IMG/VR virus record: IMGVR_UViG_3300036795_000066
Location: 1 to 30,747 of that record
Strand: one strand, 5' to 3'
From: a virus
DNA length: 30,747 nucleotides
Position 1 is the stretch's first letter; every line of letters begins with the position of its first letter. The translations under genes and the position numbers were made by a program. This document shows, piece by piece, positions 7,990 to 29,413 of the stretch. The notes under the pieces are model-generated. The model saw only the letters and a program-made list of their open reading frames with translations, was not told the origin of the DNA and did not search any database.

Positions 7990-8029
7990 GAACGAAGCCC
8001 GTTCTTAGATTTAAGAACGGGCTTCGTTC
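7990..8029 (-). terminator. strong intergenic hairpin after the tape measure gene
   Basis: An 18-bp perfect stem (7990-8007 with 8012-8029) closes a GATT tetraloop. It begins 3 bases after the TAA of the tape measure gene and ends before the ribosome site of the next gene. There is no clear U-run on either side, so it may act as an intrinsic terminator of the U-poor kind, as an attenuator, or as an mRNA end stabiliser separating tail-tube and tail-tip expression. Confidence 0.75.
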
Positions 8030-20829: not shown

Positions 20830-22023
20830 CTATAGGTTAACGACGCCCATCTTGGTCAAGTTGTAAAGCGTGACCTGGCCGAAGTCGACGGTTCCAGTGC
20901 CACCGCCGGCCGTAATCTGCGGCTCCAACGTGGTGGTACCAGCAGGCACGGTGGCCTCAATGGAGAACCGGCCGCGCGTCACAGCAGCGTTCACATACCA
21001 GGTGATGCCCTGCCCGCCAGATCCGGGGAATCCTAGGTACACCTGTGCTTTTGTGCCCCCGGTCGAGGTGATGATTCCCGTGTAACGGACCACGTCACCG
21101 GCCACGAACTTGGTTCCGCTGGACGAGGAGATGTACTGCTCAAAGGTGTAGGGACTGGTGCCCACGCCTGTAACTGCCAGCCGCTGCATCTTGCCTAGCA
21201 CCGCCGCGTCGGTGACGATAGACGGGATCGAGGATCCACCGGCTGGGGTGTTGTAAACGTTCCAGTTGTCAGCCCTCCCGTCGGCGTTGGTATCGGTCAG
21301 CATCAAACCGCCGGTAATGATGTTGTTCGGGTCTGACAGGTACTGGGTCAGCAGCTCCGCATTGGGCACCACGGACGCCGAAAGGACGTTCCACAGCGCC
21401 AGCCCAATGGCCTCGTGCCCGGCCTGACTCGGATGAATACCATCCCCGACGTCGTAAACGGTGAGGTAGTTCCAGCGCTTCGTCGGGTCGGACACCACAG
21501 CGCACAGGTCTACGCAAGGCAACCCAGCCGATGCGGCGTACCGCACGATCCAGGAGTTATAACCCCGCATCGCGGTTTCTTGCACGGTGCCGCTTGTGTA
21601 GTTGTTCGGCGGGGTCGTCATCAGCACTGGCACGGCGCCAATAGCGGCGCACTTGGCGATGATCTGCTTGATGGTGGACGAGAACAGGGCCTGACTGATG
21701 CCCTGGTTGCCGTCGTTAGCCCCGGACAAGATCGTCACGATGTTCGGCTTGTGCGGGGTGACGTCGGTGTCGAACCGGGCCAGCATGTCTACAGAGGTGT
21801 CGCCCCCGTGACCGGCGTTGTAGACAAAGTCAAGGGCGCCCTTGGAGTACAGGCTGGCCCACAACGCGAACGACTCAGTGCGCAGCGGTGTATTGCCCCC
21901 GACGGTGTCACCAGCGATGGTCTGTGAGTCGCCCAGAGAGACGAGCCGGTTGCCTAGGCGCAGCCTCCCCGAAACAGCGGTGGTGACATTCGGCAGCGTT
22001 ACATTCACCTTAGCCACAGTCAC
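20830..22023 (-). CDS. SGNH/GDSL hydrolase with C-terminal beta domain, 397 aa
   Basis: The start is GTG 22023, overlapping the upstream stop as GTGA. Catalytic blocks of the SGNH family are present in order: NRLVSLGDSQT (nucleophile S33), NAGHGGD (G71), LSGANDGNQG (N103) and DVGDGIHPSQAGHEA (D194, H197). This predicts an esterase or lipase acting on an ester or acetyl group. Residues about 235-397 form a jelly-roll-like, carbohydrate-binding-type domain (DTNADGRADNWNVYNT ... RFSIEATVPAGTTTLEPQI). Because the gene lies between MuF/small head genes and the protease, the enzyme may be displayed on the capsid. The substrate cannot be read from sequence. Confidence 0.88.
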   Translation of the reverse strand: MTVAKVNVTLPNVTTAVSGRLRLGNRLVSLGDSQTIAGDTVGGNTPLRTESFALWASLYSKGALDFVYNAGHGGDTSVDMLARFDTDVTPHKPNIVTILSGANDGNQGISQALFSSTIKQIIAKCAAIGAVPVLMTTPPNNYTSGTVQETAMRGYNSWIVRYAASAGLPCVDLCAVVSDPTKRWNYLTVYDVGDGIHPSQAGHEAIGLALWNVLSASVVPNAELLTQYLSDPNNIITGGLMLTDTNADGRADNWNVYNTPAGGSSIPSIVTDAAVLGKMQRLAVTGVGTSPYTFEQYISSSSGTKFVAGDVVRYTGIITSTGGTKAQVYLGFPGSGGQGITWYVNAAVTRGRFSIEATVPAGTTTLEPQITAGGGTGTVDFGQVTLYNLTKMGVVNL

Positions 22024-23013: not shown

Positions 23014-25002
23014 CTACTGGGTCTCGTCGTGGAAGTCGAACAGCGCCTTGCACGCGTCGATGTCACCCGCGGCCGCGAGCCGGTTAGCCGCTTCCGCGAA
23101 CTTCGGCGAGTGGTGGGAGAACTCGAAGTCCCGTGAGGTCGTGCCACGCTTGGCGGCGAAGGTCAAGAACTGCTTGCGTTCAGCCGACTTGTTGGCCGTA
23201 CCAGAAGGCGCGACTGGCACCGACTCATCGCGCTTACCCGGCTTAGGTGCCGGAGCGGCTGTTCCCGCGTCGCCATCCCCGGCCGCACTACTGTTGATCG
23301 CGGAGGGGCCCGTCGGGTGAGGGTTCTGACCAGGCAAGTTCCCCGGCACTCCGAGCGGCTGGACCTTCACGTTCAGGAACGCGGGGCCCGTCGGGGTGTT
23401 CAGGAACGGCTGGTTGGCCTCCGGGAACTCGTACCGAGGGAGGTTGAGCTGGTCGCGGCCTTCGTTCAAGGTCTGCAACCCGGAGCCGGTGTACTGCACC
23501 AGTAGCGTCGCCTCGCGCTCTTCGTCCTCGTCGTCCAGACCGTGGAATCGGAACGTGACCTCAGGTGGCATGTCCAAGTAGTTAGCGGACACCTCGTTGA
23601 CCAGGTCGATGACCCACTGCGCGGTCGGCTTGGTGCCCCGTCGTAGCTGGCTGTCCTGCTCACCTTGTTGGTGGCCGCTGCCGCCCATGCCACCCATACC
23701 GTGGTTAGGCGTGAAGCCCAGGCTGGTCGGCAGCACCTCGAACGCGGCACAGATCAATCGAACTAGGTGCAGGTCGAAGTCAGAGGTGAACTTCGAGTCG
23801 TGGCTGGACGGGTAGTCAGCGGTGAAGCCGGCCGGCAAGAACCGAGCGCGGTGCCGCTCATTGGTGCGCCCGGACAAGTCATCGTTGAACACAGCCTCGT
23901 ATTGGCGCAGCTGTTCCGGCGTCATGGTCGTATCGACATTCACGATCATTTCCGGGGTCACACCGGCCGTGTACTCCGACCGCAGCCAGTCGAACCGCTT
24001 CAGCCACAGGTCAATGTCGGCCAGTGCCTGCTCCACGCAGGAGAACCCGTACGGGCCGCGCGTGCGCCGATTCCGGACCTTGTAGATGAGCGTGTCGGTG
24101 GCGGCCTGAAGCCCCGTCGTACGCCCATAGATCGCGGACACGAATTCGTGGTCGACCTGGTCCGGCGGGCTCTGGTTGTACTCGCCGCGCGGGAATCCCC
24201 ACAAGATTTGCTGGTAGGCGGCATACGGAGGCTGCGGCGTCGCACCACGGTTGTCCATCAGCGGCTTGATGGTGCTGGAGTCCAGCAATTCCAAGGAGTG
24301 CAGATCACCATTCAGCTGCAGGTGCGGATAGAGCGCAACCGCGTCCAGAACGAGCTGGTCTTCCAGCAGGGCACCGAGCCACTCGCTGAAGGTCCAGTTA
24401 TTGATCCGGTCGGGCTTGGTCCACCAGTTGTGCAAACGCTCGATGTCGTCGGCGTACTTCTCCTGCAGATCGGCGTTGACCGCGCGGTCGGAGGTGCCCT
24501 GACGCTGAGCCAGGTGCCGGGCGCGAGCTGAATCGATCCCGAAACTCCACTCCAGGCCCGTCACAGCGGCCTTGCACACCTCGATGCAGGCCCTCATGAT
24601 GCTGACCTGGTCGGAGGCGTCGCGCAGCACCGACCACGGGGTCGAGCGGGTCGTGGTGGTCTGCAGGTTCCAGGTGACCGGGTATTCCCACCGACGGGGA
24701 GCCGAGCGCCCAGAAGGCAGTGGCGGGTCCAGCGGAGCGGGGTAGAGGGGCTCACCGGGGCCGAAGTTGACATCGTTGAGCGGGCTGCGGGTCAGGGAGG
24801 CGTCGCCAGTGATAGCGGGGTTGCCCCGGGCCTGTAGCGCCTCTAGGTAGCCCGCGGTGACATTGGTGGCCTGCGCGCCTCGGGGGAGTTGGAGGGCCTT
24901 CTGCAGCTCCTCGCGGATGACGTCACGGACATCGTTCCCGACCACCTGGGGCAGGGCGTGCGGCTGAGCGGGCTGTGCGGGGCGGCGACGGCGACGAGAC
25001 AC
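23014..25002 (-). CDS. portal protein, 662 aa
   Basis: GTG at 25002 has AAAGGGG upstream. The N-terminus is basic (MSRRRRRPAQPAQPH). The core has segments typical of siphovirus portals: DASDQVSIMRACIEVCKAAV, WTKPDRINNWTFSEWLGALL, QLVLDAVALYPHLQLNGDLH, LLDSSTIKPLMDNRG, YGFSCVEQALADIDLWLKRF and VLPTSLGFTPNHG. The last 130 residues are a Pro/Gly-rich linker plus a short helical tail. The portal forms the dodecameric ring at the head vertex through which DNA passes. The gene is separated from the terminase by tRNAs and the plus-strand cassette, instead of following it directly as usual. Confidence 0.93.
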   Translation of the reverse strand: MSRRRRRPAQPAQPHALPQVVGNDVRDVIREELQKALQLPRGAQATNVTAGYLEALQARGNPAITGDASLTRSPLNDVNFGPGEPLYPAPLDPPLPSGRSAPRRWEYPVTWNLQTTTTRSTPWSVLRDASDQVSIMRACIEVCKAAVTGLEWSFGIDSARARHLAQRQGTSDRAVNADLQEKYADDIERLHNWWTKPDRINNWTFSEWLGALLEDQLVLDAVALYPHLQLNGDLHSLELLDSSTIKPLMDNRGATPQPPYAAYQQILWGFPRGEYNQSPPDQVDHEFVSAIYGRTTGLQAATDTLIYKVRNRRTRGPYGFSCVEQALADIDLWLKRFDWLRSEYTAGVTPEMIVNVDTTMTPEQLRQYEAVFNDDLSGRTNERHRARFLPAGFTADYPSSHDSKFTSDFDLHLVRLICAAFEVLPTSLGFTPNHGMGGMGGSGHQQGEQDSQLRRGTKPTAQWVIDLVNEVSANYLDMPPEVTFRFHGLDDEDEEREATLLVQYTGSGLQTLNEGRDQLNLPRYEFPEANQPFLNTPTGPAFLNVKVQPLGVPGNLPGQNPHPTGPSAINSSAAGDGDAGTAAPAPKPGKRDESVPVAPSGTANKSAERKQFLTFAAKRGTTSRDFEFSHHSPKFAEAANRLAAAGDIDACKALFDFHDETQ

Positions 25003-25017
25003 GAGAGATACGCCCCT

Positions 25018-25045
25018 TTCACTTTGCGCTAGATGGCGGTATGGT
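25018..25045 (+). promoter_or_regulatory. putative sigma-70 promoter for the plus-strand cassette
   Basis: TTCACT (25018-25023) and TATGGT (25040-25045) are separated by 16 bases. Each matches four of six consensus positions. It lies 50 bases before the first cassette gene, in the gap between divergent portal and cassette genes. Tandem copies of AACTCACTC (25062-25070 and 25071-25079) lie just downstream and could be an operator. Match-based only. Confidence 0.4.
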
Positions 25046-25094
25046 CTGTCCTAGGTCTTGCAACTCACTCAACTCACTCACTAAGGACGCACAC

Positions 25095-25580
25095 ATGAAG
25101 CTCTGGCCCTCGACGAACGGGCAGCTTGTAGCCACGCTGGTGGCGGTGGGAGCCGCGGTGGTTGGGGTTACGGCCACGGTTGTGCTGCTCAACCACCCCG
25201 TCAGCACCCCGGATACCACCGTCGCCAGTGCCGGCCCGTTGCACGCTCACTACGAGCAGGTCGGCTCCGAGAAGATCGCCATCTGCAACCCCACCGACGC
25301 CTCGGTCACCAACGACGGACGCGAAGGGGTAGCGGGCGAGGTGAACATCCAGGGTCCGGCCGTTGTCGACGTCACCGTCCACGGCCGAGGAGTCACCCGC
25401 CACGTCACTCAGCAGATCACCCTGGGCAGCCCCGGCATGACCTTCGACATCCCGGTCACAGCCCCGGCCGACTGGATCAAGATCGTTGCTCGATCCGGTG
25501 GCAACGCAGGTACCTGCCAGATGGTGCCTCCCACGTACCCGTCAGGCCTCCGCTCGAACTTGCTCGGGACGGTGGGCTGA
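25095..25580 (+). CDS. membrane-anchored secreted protein of an antisense cassette, 161 aa
   Basis: I start at ATG 25095 because AAGGA lies just upstream; the longer frame from 24975 reads back into portal. After a short N-terminus (MKLWPSTNGQ) there is one hydrophobic segment at residues 11-32, then an exported-looking domain. That domain has ICNPTDASVTN, VNIQGPAVVDVTVHGRGV and TFDIPVTAPADW, with two cysteines (C64 and C141) that could form a disulfide outside the cell. No lipobox is seen. It is oriented against the structural operon with its own putative promoter and a downstream hairpin. Such cassettes are often lysogenic conversion or exclusion genes. I do not recognise the family. Confidence 0.8.
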   Translation: MKLWPSTNGQLVATLVAVGAAVVGVTATVVLLNHPVSTPDTTVASAGPLHAHYEQVGSEKIAICNPTDASVTNDGREGVAGEVNIQGPAVVDVTVHGRGVTRHVTQQITLGSPGMTFDIPVTAPADWIKIVARSGGNAGTCQMVPPTYPSGLRSNLLGTVG

Positions 25581-25603
25581 TCTGGGTATGAGGAGGTGAT
25601 CGA

Positions 25604-25681
25604 ATGTCTGACGACGATCCGTACTACTGTCCGCACTGCGGGGTTAGCCCCTGTGCGCACCTAACCGAAGACTGCGGCTAG
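25604..25681 (+). CDS. 25-residue cysteine/histidine microprotein
   Basis: ATG at 25604 follows a near-perfect ribosome site, GAGGAGGTGAT, with good spacing. The product begins MSDDDPYYCPHCGVSP and ends CAHLTEDCG, with CPHC, a later C and H, and a final C, which could hold one zinc ion. Very short CPHCG.SPC proteins are common in actinobacteria and their phages, as I recall. It is 23 bases after the stop of the secreted protein gene and just before the terminator hairpin, so both are probably one transcript. The strength of the ribosome site supports it despite its size. Confidence 0.7.
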   Translation: MSDDDPYYCPHCGVSPCAHLTEDCG

Positions 25682-25688
25682 ACAGCGA

Positions 25689-25727
25689 AGAACCCCCGTC
25701 GGTGCGGCTAGTCACGACGGGGGTTCT
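25689..25727. terminator. bidirectional hairpin between the plus cassette and the tRNA genes
   Basis: AGAACCCCCGTCG (25689-25701) pairs perfectly with CGACGGGGGTTCT (25715-25727), 13 bp with a 13-base loop. It sits 7 bases after the microprotein stop and 4 bases before the tRNA-Phe 3' end, so it can end both converging transcripts. The minus-strand side is followed by TTCTTCG, slightly U-rich. Confidence 0.8.
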
Positions 25728-25731
25728 CCCG

Positions 25732-25803
25732 TGGCCAGGGGTGGAATTGAACCACCGACCCCACGCTTTTCAGGCGTGTGCTCTGCCAGCTGAGCTACCA
25801 GGC
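25732..25803 (-). tRNA. tRNA-Phe (GAA), imperfect acceptor stem
   Basis: The minus strand folds as a cloverleaf: D arm GCTC-AGCTGGCA-GAGC, anticodon stem CACGC/GCGTG with loop CTGAAAA (anticodon GAA), T arm GGTGG-TTCAATT-CCACC. The acceptor GGCCTGG has only CTGGCC left opposite it once the T stem is taken, so one base seems to be missing, and one T-T mismatch is present. The gene is 72 bases. No CCA is encoded. It could be functional with a distorted stem, degenerate, or affected by a one-base sequence error. Confidence 0.85.
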
Positions 25804-25804
25804 C

Positions 25805-25880
25805 CTGGTGTCGAGGGCAGGACTCGAACCTGCATATCTCTGCTTTACAGGCAGTTGACTTACCTATCGCCCACCTCGAC
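25805..25880 (-). tRNA. tRNA-Tyr (GTA) with encoded CCA
   Basis: The acceptor GTCGAGG pairs perfectly with CCTCGAC, followed by discriminator A and CCA at 25807-25805. The anticodon loop is CTGTAAA (anticodon GTA), and the T arm is GCAGG-TTCGAGT-CCTGC. The D stem is three pairs (GGC/GTC). The variable loop is short, unlike bacterial tRNA-Tyr, which is normally class II. Its CCA lies 1 base from the next tRNA, so the transcript must be cut between them. Confidence 0.88.
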
Positions 25881-25885
25881 AAGAG

Positions 25886-25959
25886 TACTCTCGGAGGGAG
25901 TCGAACCCCCAACCTCCTGATCTTGAGTCAGGCGCCTCTGCCAATTGGGCCACGAGGGC
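25886..25959 (-). tRNA. tRNA with Leu anticodon CAA, short variable arm
   Basis: Anticodon stem CCTGA/TCAGG encloses CTCAAGA, giving anticodon CAA (reads UUG). T arm is GGGGG-TTCGACT-CCCTC. The acceptor GCCCTCG pairs with CGAGAGT with one mismatch and a terminal G-T pair; discriminator A. The variable region is five bases (AGGTT), although bacterial tRNA-Leu normally has a long variable arm, so amino-acid identity needs care. Confidence 0.85.
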
Positions 25960-25960
25960 G

Positions 25961-26034
25961 GGCCCCTGGAGGGATTCGAACTCTCACTGACCAGAACCTA
26001 AATCTGGCGCCTCTAACCGTTGGGCTACAGGGGC
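25961..26034 (-). tRNA. tRNA with Leu anticodon TAG, short variable arm
   Basis: The acceptor GCCCCTG pairs perfectly with CAGGGGC. Anticodon stem CCAGA/TCTGG encloses TTTAGGT, giving anticodon TAG (reads CUA and CUG). T arm is GAGAG-TTCGAAT-CCCTC with one mismatch. The variable region is five bases and the discriminator is C, whereas LeuRS substrates have A73 and a long arm. Charging with leucine is therefore uncertain. It is one base from the CAA tRNA. Confidence 0.85.
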
Positions 26035-26039
26035 GGGGC

Positions 26040-26070
26040 TACCCCGGTCCACGAGCCCCGGACCGGGGTA
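26040..26070. terminator. GC-rich hairpin upstream of the tRNA cluster
   Basis: TACCCCGGTCC (26040-26050) pairs perfectly with GGACCGGGGTA (26060-26070), 11 bp with a 9-base loop, 6 bases before the first tRNA. No U-run follows. It could limit read-through from the terminase genes or help processing of the tRNA precursor. Confidence 0.5.
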
Positions 26071-26142: not shown

Positions 26143-26415
26143 CTAGCTCTTTAAGGAGGCCTTGTCGTCCTTCTCATCAGCCTTCTTGGCCTTGAGTTCC
26201 TCATACTTAGCTAGCGAGACGAACGGGTCCATCGAATCCCCGGGGTGCTGACTGCGCACGAGCTGCTCACCCCGGAACGTCGACCAGAACGTCTCGATGT
26301 CAGCCTCATCACGCTCAGCTTGGTCCTTGGCTTCCTGTTCGGCCGCTTCGCGCTCCTTGCGCTGGTCAGCGGTCTCCTTGGTGGCGGTGTCCTGCTTGGT
26401 GTCCGTGTCCGACAT
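26143..26415 (-). CDS. small highly charged protein, 90 aa
   Basis: ATG 26415 has GGGGAG five bases upstream. About half of the residues are Lys, Glu, Asp, Arg or Gln (for example KETADQRKEREAAEQEAKDQ), predicting a long helix or coiled coil. A central segment, FWSTFRGEQLVRSQHPG, and a Lys-rich tail ADEKDDKASLKS follow. There is no family I recognise. Its place between terminase-linked genes and tRNAs gives little clue. It is probably cytoplasmic and could be an assembly helper. Confidence 0.7.
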   Translation of the reverse strand: MSDTDTKQDTATKETADQRKEREAAEQEAKDQAERDEADIETFWSTFRGEQLVRSQHPGDSMDPFVSLAKYEELKAKKADEKDDKASLKS

Positions 26416-26464
26416 TGCTACTCCCCATCATCAGGTGGTGGCGGAGACAGCGTTCCCGTCGGGA

Positions 26465-26665
26465 CTAGCCGGTAAACCCAGCGTGGCTGTAGATCACGCC
26501 TACGTTCCCCCAAAGGAGGGAGATTCCGTAGAGGATGCCGGCCACTCCGAGCCACAGACCCCACCCGAGTTGCGGCGGGAGCCACGCCGGATGCGGAACC
26601 AGGTAGAGCCCGGTGCCGATGAGTGAGAACACCAGTGCGAGCGCGCACAAGACGATGCCGGTCAC
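26465..26665 (-). CDS. small two-helix membrane protein, 66 aa
   Basis: I start at GTG 26665, whose first base is the last of the upstream TAG stop (TAGTG), giving tight coupling. The frame is open further upstream, but that part overlaps the membrane gene at 26665-26817 in another frame. Two hydrophobic segments are seen, residues 1-23 (VTGIVLCALALVFSLIGTGL) and 34-53 (WGLWLGVAGILYGISLL). The function is not known. The overlapping alternative frame to 26418 is Arg/Ser-rich and looks like a shadow. Confidence 0.65.
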   Translation of the reverse strand: MTGIVLCALALVFSLIGTGLYLVPHPAWLPPQLGWGLWLGVAGILYGISLLWGNVGVIYSHAGFTG

Positions 26666-26817
26666 TAGTACCAGCGCCTTCCACCGACCGGGTGGCCCAC
26701 CGAGCCGAGCAGAAACAACACCAGCCCGACAACCAGCAGGATGCCACCAACGGTGTAGAGGATCGAGAGGCCAGTCAGCCACCCGATCAGGAGCAGAATC
26801 ACGCCTAGCACGATCAT
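26665..26817 (-). CDS. 50-residue membrane protein, DUF6131-like
   Basis: ATG 26817 is chosen because AAAGG lies 6 bases upstream and the product then begins MIVLGVILLLIGWLTGLSIL. The whole chain is two hydrophobic helices with a short polar turn, ending GHPVGGRRWY. This size and the 'G.VGGRR.Y' ending match small actinobacterial membrane proteins I recall as DUF6131, of unknown function. It is coupled to the next membrane gene by TAGTG and lies 75 bases after the terminase gene. Confidence 0.75.
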   Translation of the reverse strand: MIVLGVILLLIGWLTGLSILYTVGGILLVVGLVLFLLGSVGHPVGGRRWY

Positions 26818-26892: not shown

Positions 26893-28317
26893 TCAGCCGA
26901 CCGCCGACAGCATCATGGGCTTGCCACAGTGCTTGCACACCGTCGCCGCGCGCCCGTTGATCCCGGTGCAGCTCGAACATTCGCTGCTGATCGAGTTCAG
27001 GAAGATCAGCGCACTGTTGCCCACCGACAGCTCCGTGGCCGCCCAGACCAGAGCGTCCAGGTTGTCCGGGCTCTCGGTGGTGTCCGGGGTGAACGCGCAC
27101 ATCTGGTCTTCCAGCTCGGGCAGGCTCCCGACGATGTGGCCGCGGCCCTGTTCCCAGAGCGCCGAGATCGGCTCCGCCCGAACGATCTTTCCTCGGGTGG
27201 CCCGTACTGACTTATAGGGCACCGTCGGATCGACCGTACGCAGCAGGTTCTCGATGTAGTCGCCACCGTTGTTGACCTCAGCGACAATCCGGTCGGCGTG
27301 CCAATCCCGGTACATCTGCACGGCCTTAGTCATGCACGAGCGCGGCGTACCCTTCATGGTCTCGTCCTGCAACACGTAGAGGTGCCCCGCGTTGTCCCGG
27401 CCGGCGACCACAATGCCAGTGAAGTCGCTCTTCTCGCCCGAGGTCGTCGCCGGGTCTACCCCGACCACAATCCGCACCAAAGGCGGGAACTTGTCGACCC
27501 GCGTGTCATCAATCATGTCGCGGTTCCACAGGGCGCCTTCAACATCATCGAGGAGTTCACCCTCAAGCTCCTGGCGGCCCATTCGCGTGCCTTCATAACG
27601 GGCCTTCAGCTCAGCCAGCGCCACCTGGGAGAGGTTGTCCGCGTTATCCCAGGTACGCCCACGAATAACCCGCACCGAGCCGTCTGTACGCGCCAGCAGT
27701 TCCTTGAGTAGCTTCACCGGGCGCGGCGTCGTCGTGACCACCACCGTGGGTCGTTCACCGATCCGCAGCGCCGGCATGAGGCTCTCACCCCACAGATCGT
27801 CGGCGTGCGCCATGGAGGCCAGCTCGTCGATCCAGGCCCCGGAGAGGTTCGCGCCACGCAGCCGGTCCGGTCGGTCAGCCGAGTAGCCATAGATCTTGGA
27901 GCCGTTAGTCAATCGAACAGTCAGGTCGGAGGCGTTGCAGCTATCGAGTTCGCCAGGCAGCAGCGCGCGCAGGATTCCGGACTGACCTTCGATACAGACC
28001 TTGCGACAGTCCCGCCACGTCGGTGCGACCACAGCCCATTCCGTGTCCGGGTTGGTCGCGGCCTGCTCAGCCAGCCAGTTACTCCCCGTGGCGCTTTTGC
28101 CCCAGCCACGTCCGGCCAGGTACAGGTGCACCGAGGCGGAGGTCTCAGCGGCGTTGGGGATGCGCTGGTCGTCTCGCGCGGAGGTGTGCCAGGGACGGGG
28201 GCGCTTCGGAGCGTGCTTGGCCAGGAGCTTCTGGTACTCGGCGACGCGCAGGCGCAGCTCAGCCAGCTCTTGGAGCTTCTCCAGCGGAGCTTCGACCTTG
28301 GGGGGTTCGTTGCCCAC
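26893..28317 (-). CDS. terminase large subunit, 474 aa
   Basis: GTG 28317 has AAGGAGGTG upstream. The ATPase half shows Walker A AGRGWGKS (residues 68-75), Walker B WIDELA (162-167) and a coupling-type VVVTTTPRP (192-200). The nuclease half shows the acidic set GVDPATT (D288), AEVNN (E347) and DNLDALVWA (D421). Together these package and cut phage DNA at the portal. Unusually, the C-terminus carries C447, C450, C461 and C464 (CSSC...CKHCGKP), a zinc ribbon that may contact DNA, the portal or a partner. No small terminase subunit is evident beside it. Confidence 0.96.
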   Translation of the reverse strand: MGNEPPKVEAPLEKLQELAELRLRVAEYQKLLAKHAPKRPRPWHTSARDDQRIPNAAETSASVHLYLAGRGWGKSATGSNWLAEQAATNPDTEWAVVAPTWRDCRKVCIEGQSGILRALLPGELDSCNASDLTVRLTNGSKIYGYSADRPDRLRGANLSGAWIDELASMAHADDLWGESLMPALRIGERPTVVVTTTPRPVKLLKELLARTDGSVRVIRGRTWDNADNLSQVALAELKARYEGTRMGRQELEGELLDDVEGALWNRDMIDDTRVDKFPPLVRIVVGVDPATTSGEKSDFTGIVVAGRDNAGHLYVLQDETMKGTPRSCMTKAVQMYRDWHADRIVAEVNNGGDYIENLLRTVDPTVPYKSVRATRGKIVRAEPISALWEQGRGHIVGSLPELEDQMCAFTPDTTESPDNLDALVWAATELSVGNSALIFLNSISSECSSCTGINGRAATVCKHCGKPMMLSAVG

Positions 28318-28386: not shown

Positions 28387-28833
28387 ATGAGTACAAGCAC
28401 TGATGTGGGTCTGAAGACCTTCGAGAACCGACTGCGTCGTAACGCCAAGCGCCGGGGCTTCCTGCTGGTCAAGTCCGCGCGTCGTGATCCCTACGCCCAC
28501 GACTTCGGCCTGTACGTGATGGTGTCGGACGGAGGGGGTCGCGCCGGGCGTGTTCGAGGCGGAAACGAGCAGGTCGAGGCGATGTTCGCTCGCGGCGAAG
28601 GCCGAACCATGGTGGAGATCGCCGAGACGCTGAACCTGATGGCGGTCCGGGAGGAAGGCGGGGGTGGCTACTTCAGCGCGGGAGCCATCAGCGACATGGT
28701 CCGAAGGGCCAAGATCGCGGTACTGGAGGAACTGGTCGGGGCGGCGTCGGCTGACTCAGGCTTTACGGTCCAGGACGCGGTTGACTGGGCGGAGTGCGCG
28801 GTGGCGAAGATCAAAAGAGAGGGAGCGTCGTAA
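28387..28833 (+). CDS. phage protein of unknown function with HTH-like segment, 148 aa
   Basis: I start at ATG 28387; the frame is open far upstream, but that part is antisense to the terminase. The N-terminal FENRLRRNAKRRGFLLVKSA then RRDPYAHDFGLYVMVSD is a short motif seen in many small actinophage proteins, as I recall. Residues about 73-110 (TMVEIAETLNLMAVREE ... AISDMVRRAKIAV) look like a helix-turn-helix. It might be a DNA-binding regulator or a small terminase analogue, given its place beside the large subunit; neither is shown. The stop overlaps the next start as TAATG. Confidence 0.75.
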   Translation: MSTSTDVGLKTFENRLRRNAKRRGFLLVKSARRDPYAHDFGLYVMVSDGGGRAGRVRGGNEQVEAMFARGEGRTMVEIAETLNLMAVREEGGGGYFSAGAISDMVRRAKIAVLEELVGAASADSGFTVQDAVDWAECAVAKIKREGAS

Positions 28834-29222
28834 TGCTGTTCTGGATGATTCGTCGTACGGTGCCTCGTCGGGCCGACCCTGCTGGCTGCGCGGTGGTGGT
28901 GTTGACGTTCGCCGTGCTCGCGGTACTCGGTGTTGTCGTCAGGATCGTGCGGTCGGTGTCGGAGGCTGGGTGGGGTCCGCTGCTCGTGATCGGTGTCGGG
29001 GTCGTGGGGGTCATCGGGTTGGCGATACTCGGAGCGCGGATGGCCCCTCCACCTGGACCGCCCCTGGTCCCCTACCGACCGCCGCGACCGCCTAAGCCTC
29101 CGCTGCCCCCGGTACCGCCCGAACCTTCGCCGGACCTGCCTGTTGTGAAGCCGTCTACAGGCTCTGGTTCGGGGCGTCAACCGCAGCATCGCCCGCAGGC
29201 CTGGTATTCGGACCGGCGTTGA
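28833..29222 (+). CDS. two-helix membrane protein with proline-rich tail, 129 aa
   Basis: ATG 28833 overlaps the upstream stop (TAATG) and has GAGGGAG before it. Hydrophobic helices lie at about residues 19-39 (GCAVVVLTFAVLAVLGVVV) and 48-68 (PLLVIGVGVVGVIGLAILGA). Residues 71-107 are very proline-rich (PYRPPRPPKPPLPPVPPEP), then a Ser/Gly/Gln-rich end. The tail probably faces one side of the host membrane and could bind protein partners. The function is unknown. It is the middle gene of a coupled three-gene unit. Confidence 0.75.
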   Translation: MLFWMIRRTVPRRADPAGCAVVVLTFAVLAVLGVVVRIVRSVSEAGWGPLLVIGVGVVGVIGLAILGARMAPPPGPPLVPYRPPRPPKPPLPPVPPEPSPDLPVVKPSTGSGSGRQPQHRPQAWYSDRR

Positions 29223-29413
29223 TGACGACACCTGAACCCGAAGTCGCCTACCCCAACCTACGCACGCAGTGCCACAACTGCCACGGCCACGGAAGCTACG
29301 GGGTTCCTCGGTTGGCGATGAGCGCGGGTCGTCTGGTCGAGGGCTACGAACGCAAGGAATGCCCGGACTGTGAGGGCCACGGCTGGTTGGTGGGGTTTCA
29401 GATCCCGATGTAG
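29222..29413 (+). CDS. small DnaJ-type zinc finger protein, 63 aa
   Basis: ATG 29222 overlaps the previous stop (TGATG). Two CxxCxGxG motifs are present: CHNCHGHG at residues 17-24 and CPDCEGHG at 47-54. One pair of such motifs makes one zinc site in DnaJ. There is no J domain. Free-standing proteins of this type are common in actinophages and may act as chaperone-like or nucleic-acid-binding adaptors. Its TAG abuts the stop of the convergent exonuclease gene, leaving no room for a terminator. Confidence 0.8.
   Translation: MTTPEPEVAYPNLRTQCHNCHGHGSYGVPRLAMSAGRLVEGYERKECPDCEGHGWLVGFQIPM

What the first reader, a model, noticed from the sequence alone, without database searches (positions are those of the whole stretch)
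25018..25727. Antisense moron-like cassette between tRNAs and portal
A promoter-like pair, a gene for a membrane-anchored exported protein, a microprotein and a perfect 13-bp hairpin form a complete unit that opposes the structural operon. It splits terminase from portal, which are normally neighbours. Such cassettes often express in lysogens or early infection and change the host surface or exclude other phages.
Basis: partly seen in the sequence, partly recalled or inferred. Interest (0 to 1): 0.72.

Follow-up and report, generated by a model that had tools for sequence, protein, structure and literature searches.

The report
Extra reverse-strand gene in phage junction
An uncultivated phage carries one extra backward-facing gene for a small membrane-anchored, exported protein at a spot where related phages also pick up stray genes; this is an ordinary kind of phage add-on with an unknown, probably cell-surface, role.

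Summary
The cassette is real, with corrections. The + strand gene is 25095-25580 (161 aa: one transmembrane helix plus an exported beta-rich domain with two conserved cysteines). Codon usage matches the phage's structural genes, and distant homologues lie in two related phage contigs. A 25-aa Zn-ligand-rich microORF (25604-25681) has an 11-nt perfect Shine-Dalgarno. The 13-bp hairpin (25689-25727) is far beyond chance. However, the hairpin is not the cassette's own: all five closest relatives, which lack the cassette, carry a hairpin at the same place, just after tRNA-Phe (or its remnant). The promoter is weak (8/12; as good in 14% of shuffles). Terminase and portal are already separated by tRNAs and a small gene in the relatives. 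A portal tree places the cassette as a gain in the window's lineage. Other lineages carry a Clp_N gene (sense) or HNH-like plus membrane genes (antisense) at the same junction, so it is a landing site for accessory genes. Best explanation: a moron-type accessory gene whose product sits in the host envelope and probably modifies the surface or excludes competitors. That function is inferred from topology and one homologue's neighbourhood. It is a new, orphan member of a known kind.

The parts
25018..25045 (+). Weak promoter-like pair TTCACT-N16-TATGGT (TANNNT-type -10) in the 92-nt divergent gap between portal and cassette
   Evidence: 8/12 match, reached by 13.7% of shuffles; not found at 9/12. 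Candidate only.
25083..25094 (+). Ribosome-binding site (AAGGA) and spacer for the cassette gene
   Evidence: Sequence; 6-nt anti-SD match.
25095..25580 (+). Cassette gene, 161 aa: N-terminal TM helix (about residues 8-32), exported beta-rich domain with Cys64 and Cys141
   Evidence: Codon usage, homologues in G001 and G013, low-confidence models.
25591..25601 (+). 11-nt perfect Shine-Dalgarno AGGAGGTGATC of the microORF
   Evidence: Only occurrence in the window; longest of 16 starts compared.
25604..25681 (+). MicroORF MSDDDPYYCPHCGVSPCAHLTEDCG, Zn-ligand-rich, no homologue found
   Evidence: Strong SD; no family match above cut-offs.
25689..25727 (.). Perfect 13-bp hairpin, loop 13; resident 3' hairpin of the tRNA operon, possibly also the cassette's terminator on the + strand
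   Evidence: 0/300 shuffles; hairpins at the same place in five cassette-free relatives, z -4.6 to -7.3.
25731..26034 (-). Four tRNA genes: Phe(gaa), Tyr(gta), Leu(caa), Leu(tag)
   Evidence: ARAGORN, Rfam RF00005.
23014..25002 (-). Portal protein gene, divergent from the cassette
   Evidence: PHROG 2662 E 2e-59, PF04860.
26893..28317 (-). Terminase large subunit gene
   Evidence: PF03237/PF17289.
26143..26817 (-). Three small ORFs between terminase and tRNAs; the one at 26665-26817 is resident in sisters, the other two have homologues elsewhere in G001

Best explanation
The cassette is an accessory (moron-type) gene inserted in the window's lineage at the terminase-portal junction of an uncultivated phage group, probably infecting actinobacteria. 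It lies between an existing tRNA-operon 3' hairpin and the portal ribosome-binding site, facing against the structural operon. It is transcribed on its own from the portal-cassette divergent gap and stops at the borrowed hairpin, which can work in both directions. Its main product is a single-pass membrane protein with a disulfide-capable beta domain outside the membrane. The most likely role is in the infected or lysogenic host's envelope: altering the surface or blocking entry of competing phage. A small Zn-binding microprotein is made from the same transcript. Shown: gene, orientation, lineage-specific presence, resident hairpin, recurrent insertion at this junction. Inferred: transcription, export, disulfide, surface or exclusion role.
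For: Portal tree: the window is sister to five phages that have terminase, small TM gene, tRNAs, hairpin, portal and no cassette. More distant relatives lack it too. Homologues are elsewhere in relatives: G001 at 67.6-68.1 kb (E 4e-5) and G013 at 98.6-99.0 kb (E 2e-13), with a shared TM anchor, Cys pair and QQ-T...F-D core. Other lineages carry other genes at the same junction: sense Clp_N in L022/L025, antisense HNH-like plus TM genes in L021 (L020 partial). Two other genes of the window's junction (26465-26782, 26143-26415) also have homologues elsewhere in G001 (56% and 43%). In G001 the homologue lies beside a membrane-anchored NodB-like deacetylase, a secreted glycoside-hydrolase-like protein and a GT2-like glycosyltransferase (families assigned by eye). 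Codon usage is native.
Against: No transcript or protein data; the promoter is no better than chance. The structure models are low confidence (pLDDT 42-48), so the fold is unknown. The contig has no demonstrated lysogeny genes, and the homologue's neighbourhood in G013 is different (FtsK-like translocase, XRE-like regulator), so the envelope role rests on topology and one neighbourhood. Native codon usage gives no sign of recent foreign origin.
Confidence: 0.7

Rival explanations
1. The unit is a two-component prophage exclusion system working like lambda RexAB, Sbash 30/31, CarolAnn 43/44 or Butters 30/31: a membrane effector plus a small cytoplasmic partner (here the Zn microprotein).
For: Two genes in one unit, one membrane protein and one small soluble protein, own candidate promoter; such pairs are documented in actinophages (PMC7542560, PMC6426606).
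Against: Those membrane components have four TM segments and the cytoplasmic ones a weak DUF4747 match; here there is one TM segment, a 25-aa partner and no homology found.
Confidence: 0.12
2. The gene is a lysis or envelope accessory, for example a regulator of holin or endolysin action in the actinobacterial envelope.
For: Small phage proteins with one N-terminal TM and an exported domain occur near lysis genes (general knowledge); in G001 the homologue lies about 9 kb from a GH25-like lysin (by eye).
Against: It is antisense to the late operon and not in a lysis module here; no matching family.
Confidence: 0.08
3. The insertion mainly acts on gene expression: the antisense unit and hairpin keep portal and downstream structural mRNA low outside late infection.
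For: A rightward transcript would start about 50 nt from the portal start, and read-through from upstream must cross the hairpin and an antisense gene.
Against: The hairpin is there without the cassette, with only about 33-37 nt before portal, so the structural operon already lives with it; the ORF has native codon bias and homologues elsewhere, so it is kept as a protein.
Confidence: 0.05
4. Chance ORF in GC-rich DNA beside a tRNA-operon terminator.
For: 13% of shuffles give an ORF as long.
Against: Codon usage like portal, good RBS, homologues with shared architecture in two relatives.
Confidence: 0.03

Closest known systems
Morons (phage accessory genes between core genes, typically with own promoter and terminator)
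   Same: Extra gene of variable presence, unrelated to its neighbours, between core genes, opposite to the operon, bounded by a hairpin.
   Different: Promoter weak and unproven; the hairpin is resident and not carried by the gene; codon usage and GC are native.
Ltp-type superinfection exclusion lipoproteins (S. thermophilus phage TP-J34; PMC3952083)
   Same: Phage-encoded, surface-exposed, membrane-attached protein regarded as a moron.
   Different: Ltp is a lipoprotein; this protein has a TM anchor and no sequence family match.
Sbash 30/31, CarolAnn 43/44 and Butters 30/31 defence pairs (PMC7542560, PMC6426606)
   Same: Actinophage accessory gene pair with one membrane and one soluble protein.
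   Different: Four-TM membrane component and larger soluble partner there; one TM and a 25-aa microprotein here; no homology found.
MmpS/Mycobact_memb (PF05423) small anchored proteins of mycobacteria
   Same: N-terminal TM plus small exported beta domain (recalled from memory, a lead only).
   Different: No Pfam match to it even at E 1.

Membership tests
Moron (accessory phage gene) | Present in some and absent from closely related phages at the same locus | tested here: met
   Absent in five sister phages and in more distant relatives.
Moron (accessory phage gene) | Own promoter | tested here: inconclusive
   8/12 pair, 13.7% of shuffles as good.
Moron (accessory phage gene) | A terminator at its end | tested here: inconclusive
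   A strong hairpin follows the unit, but cassette-free relatives have one at the same place, so it belongs to the tRNA operon; whether it ends the cassette transcript was not testable.
Moron (accessory phage gene) | Base composition or codon use unlike neighbours (often cited, not required) | tested here: not met
   GC3 and codon score like portal and terminase.
Moron (accessory phage gene) | Expressed independently of the operon, e.g. in lysogens | not testable with these tools
   Needs strand-specific RNA-seq.
RexAB-like exclusion pair | Four-TM membrane component and DUF4747-type partner | tested here: not met
   One hydrophobic segment in the sequence and model; 25-aa partner; no Pfam match.
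MmpS/Mycobact_memb | PF05423 match | tested here: not met
   hmmscan to E 1 gives only DUF6059 below its cut-off.

The most novel reading that the evidence does not exclude
The terminase-portal junction of this phage group, marked by a tRNA array with 3' hairpins and by HNH-type genes nearby, is a recurrent entry site at which envelope-directed genes are exchanged, and the cassette protein founds a new family of phage envelope proteins that act as a single-TM exclusion factor with a Zn microprotein partner.
Probability: 0.12. Interest if true: 0.55.

Novelty: new member of a known kind. Interest (0 to 1): 0.33.

Why it matters
It shows, with a small tree, that one core junction in an uncultivated phage group takes up different accessory genes in different lineages, in both orientations, while a tRNA-adjacent hairpin stays in place. 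It also gives an orphan family (three members) of exported phage membrane proteins to test for surface or exclusion effects.

Tried and rejected
Protein searches of phages, plasmids, Pfam, PHROGs, NCBIfam, PDB sequences, the IMG/VR viral contigs and 84,980 GTDB genomes found no relatives beyond G001 and G013, which came from whole-record searches of related contigs. The contig scans rest on short peptide patterns, so distant relatives could be missed. Two AlphaFold jobs gave low-confidence models (pLDDT 48 and 42). The Foldseek hits (carbohydrate-binding beta-sandwiches, TM-score about 0.3) are treated as no evidence. A search for prophage relatives in GTDB to name the host found none. MmpS membership was rejected. 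The G008 hit was rejected: 41 aa with a stop. The antisense ORF in L009/L032 (101 aa) is only a candidate: no homologue, no promoter. The + strand genes at 28405-29413 are not treated as part of this cassette: in G001 the homologue of the first gene begins a divergent set upstream of terminase. L035 was left out of the junction comparison because its terminase is in pieces.

Full report
What the window is. The window is itself one IMG/VR virus record of 30,747 bases. No close relative exists among 50,697 isolated phages: no megablast match; portal matches at 31% or less; terminase matches at 49% or less, many of them to phages of actinobacteria. Structural genes run on the minus strand from terminase (26893-28317) through portal (23014-25002), a MuF-like gene, a protease-like gene and tail genes.

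Checking the observation. The + strand ORF 25095-25580 (161 aa) starts at ATG with AAGGA 7 nt upstream. In this GC-rich DNA its length alone means little (133 of 1000 shuffles have one as long), but its codon usage and GC3 match the structural genes. The microORF 25604-25681 carries the only AGGAGGTGATC in the window directly upstream, a good sign that it is translated. The hairpin 25689-25727 is a perfect 13-bp stem, never reached in 300 shuffles. The promoter is the weak part: TTCACT-N16-TATGGT, 8 of 12, as good in 13.7% of shuffles.

Relatives. Portal searches of IMG/VR gave about 20 distinct related contigs. The five nearest (84-85% terminase identity; L016, L017, L018, L019, L030) were the only ones found again by a terminase search, which added no others. 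All five have terminase, a small membrane ORF (homologue of window 26665-26817), tRNAs, a hairpin, then portal, and no cassette. The hairpins start 1-4 nt after tRNA-Phe (in L030 after a tRNA-Phe-like remnant that lost its anticodon arm). They differ in sequence but all fold (z -4.6 to -7.3; window z -4.3), whereas five terminase-portal gaps without tRNAs show z of -1.3 to +1.3. So the hairpin is a resident element of the tRNA 3' end and not something the cassette brought. Its job there (partial terminator, RNA end protection or processing) is open; in the relatives only about 33-37 nt lie between hairpin and portal start, so complete termination there would leave almost no room for a portal promoter.

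A landing site. On a portal tree the window is sister to those five, so the cassette is best read as a gain in the window's lineage. Other lineages carry other things at the same junction: a sense Clp_N-domain gene in L022 and L025 (PF02861, E 2e-37), whose homologue lies at 109.5 kb in G001; and antisense genes in L021 (partly seen in L020): a zinc protein with an HNH-endonuclease PHROG match (E 1e-12) followed by a membrane protein related to window 28794-29222 (28%, E 7e-6), behind a better sigma-70-like promoter (TTGACG-N17-TATCTT in L021, 9/12, 1.4% of shuffles; TTGACG-N16-TACACT in L020, 0.5%). Several lineages have nothing there. In the window itself, two further genes of the junction (26465-26782 and 26143-26415) have homologues at 104 kb and 35.8 kb in G001. 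That makes at least three separate gains at one junction.

The protein. It has one hydrophobic helix near the N-terminus, then about 110 residues rich in predicted beta strands, with Cys64 and Cys141 (low confidence). Homologues were found only in G001 (32-34%, E 4e-5 in the contig search) and G013 (29-32%, E 2e-13 with the two-sequence profile). All three share the anchor, the two cysteines and a QQ-T/F-D core. In G001 the gene sits among a WhiB-like regulator, a radical-SAM-like protein, a membrane-anchored NodB-like deacetylase, a secreted glycoside-hydrolase-like protein and a GT2-like glycosyltransferase; in G013 it sits near an FtsK-like translocase and an XRE-like regulator. These neighbour names come from reading the sequences and were not run through a family library. 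Searches elsewhere were empty (see tried and rejected).

Mechanism. The most likely reading is a moron-type gene, expressed on its own, that places a small exported domain on the host membrane and changes the surface or blocks rivals. The topology and one neighbourhood point that way; nothing here tests function. The RexAB-like reading is possible as an analogy but fails the known features of that group (four TM segments, DUF4747-type partner; PMC7542560, PMC6426606). An expression-control role for the antisense unit is possible but unlikely to be why it is kept.

Novelty. The kind is known (phage accessory gene, moron); the protein family is an orphan, and my few paper searches brought up no description of this junction as an entry site in this group. 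Interest is modest.

Noticed in passing
window 28405-29413 (+): A second + strand set just upstream of terminase: a 142-aa protein, a membrane protein (28794-29222) and a zinc-ribbon-like protein (29219-29413). The first has a homologue at the same place, also divergent, in G001 (48%).
   Followed up: partly
window 26040-26070: An 11-bp perfect hairpin on the other side of the tRNA array, so the four tRNAs are flanked by hairpins; L018 also has a strong hairpin between tRNA-Tyr and tRNA-Phe.
   Followed up: no
window 7990-8029: An 18-bp perfect hairpin with a 4-nt loop in the 73-nt gap after the 1456-aa tape-measure-like gene.
   Followed up: no
window 20830-22023 (-): A 397-aa protein with SGNH/GDSL-like motifs (GDSQT, GAND, DGIHP) lies between the MuF-like and protease-like head genes; in G001 those two are neighbours without it.
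   Followed up: no
L009/L032, L008/L031, L033, L034, L004, L028, L007/L027, L035: Terminase and portal genes of relatives are repeatedly interrupted at a few fixed residues (terminase about 71, 162, 425; portal about 244); L009 reads through as an intein-like ORF, and the inserts in L007 and L035 contain relatives of the HNH-type zinc protein of the L021 junction.
   Followed up: partly
window 26893-26960 (-) and relatives: The terminase large subunit ends in a C-terminal zinc-ribbon-like CxxC...CxxC motif, also present in L003, L009 and G001.
   Followed up: no
G001 65.6-72.3 kb (L042): A phage gene cluster that looks like polysaccharide synthesis and trimming: GT2-like transferase, NodB-like deacetylase, secreted glycoside-hydrolase-like protein, WhiB-like and radical-SAM-like proteins.
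   Followed up: no
L030 6862-6925: A degenerate tRNA-Phe that has lost its anticodon arm but keeps the hairpin after it.
   Followed up: partly
G013 86-100 kb: FtsK-like DNA translocase, XRE-like regulator and sortase-like protein (and a DUF397-like small protein at 26.8 kb) suggest a phage of actinobacteria with plasmid-like genes.
   Followed up: no
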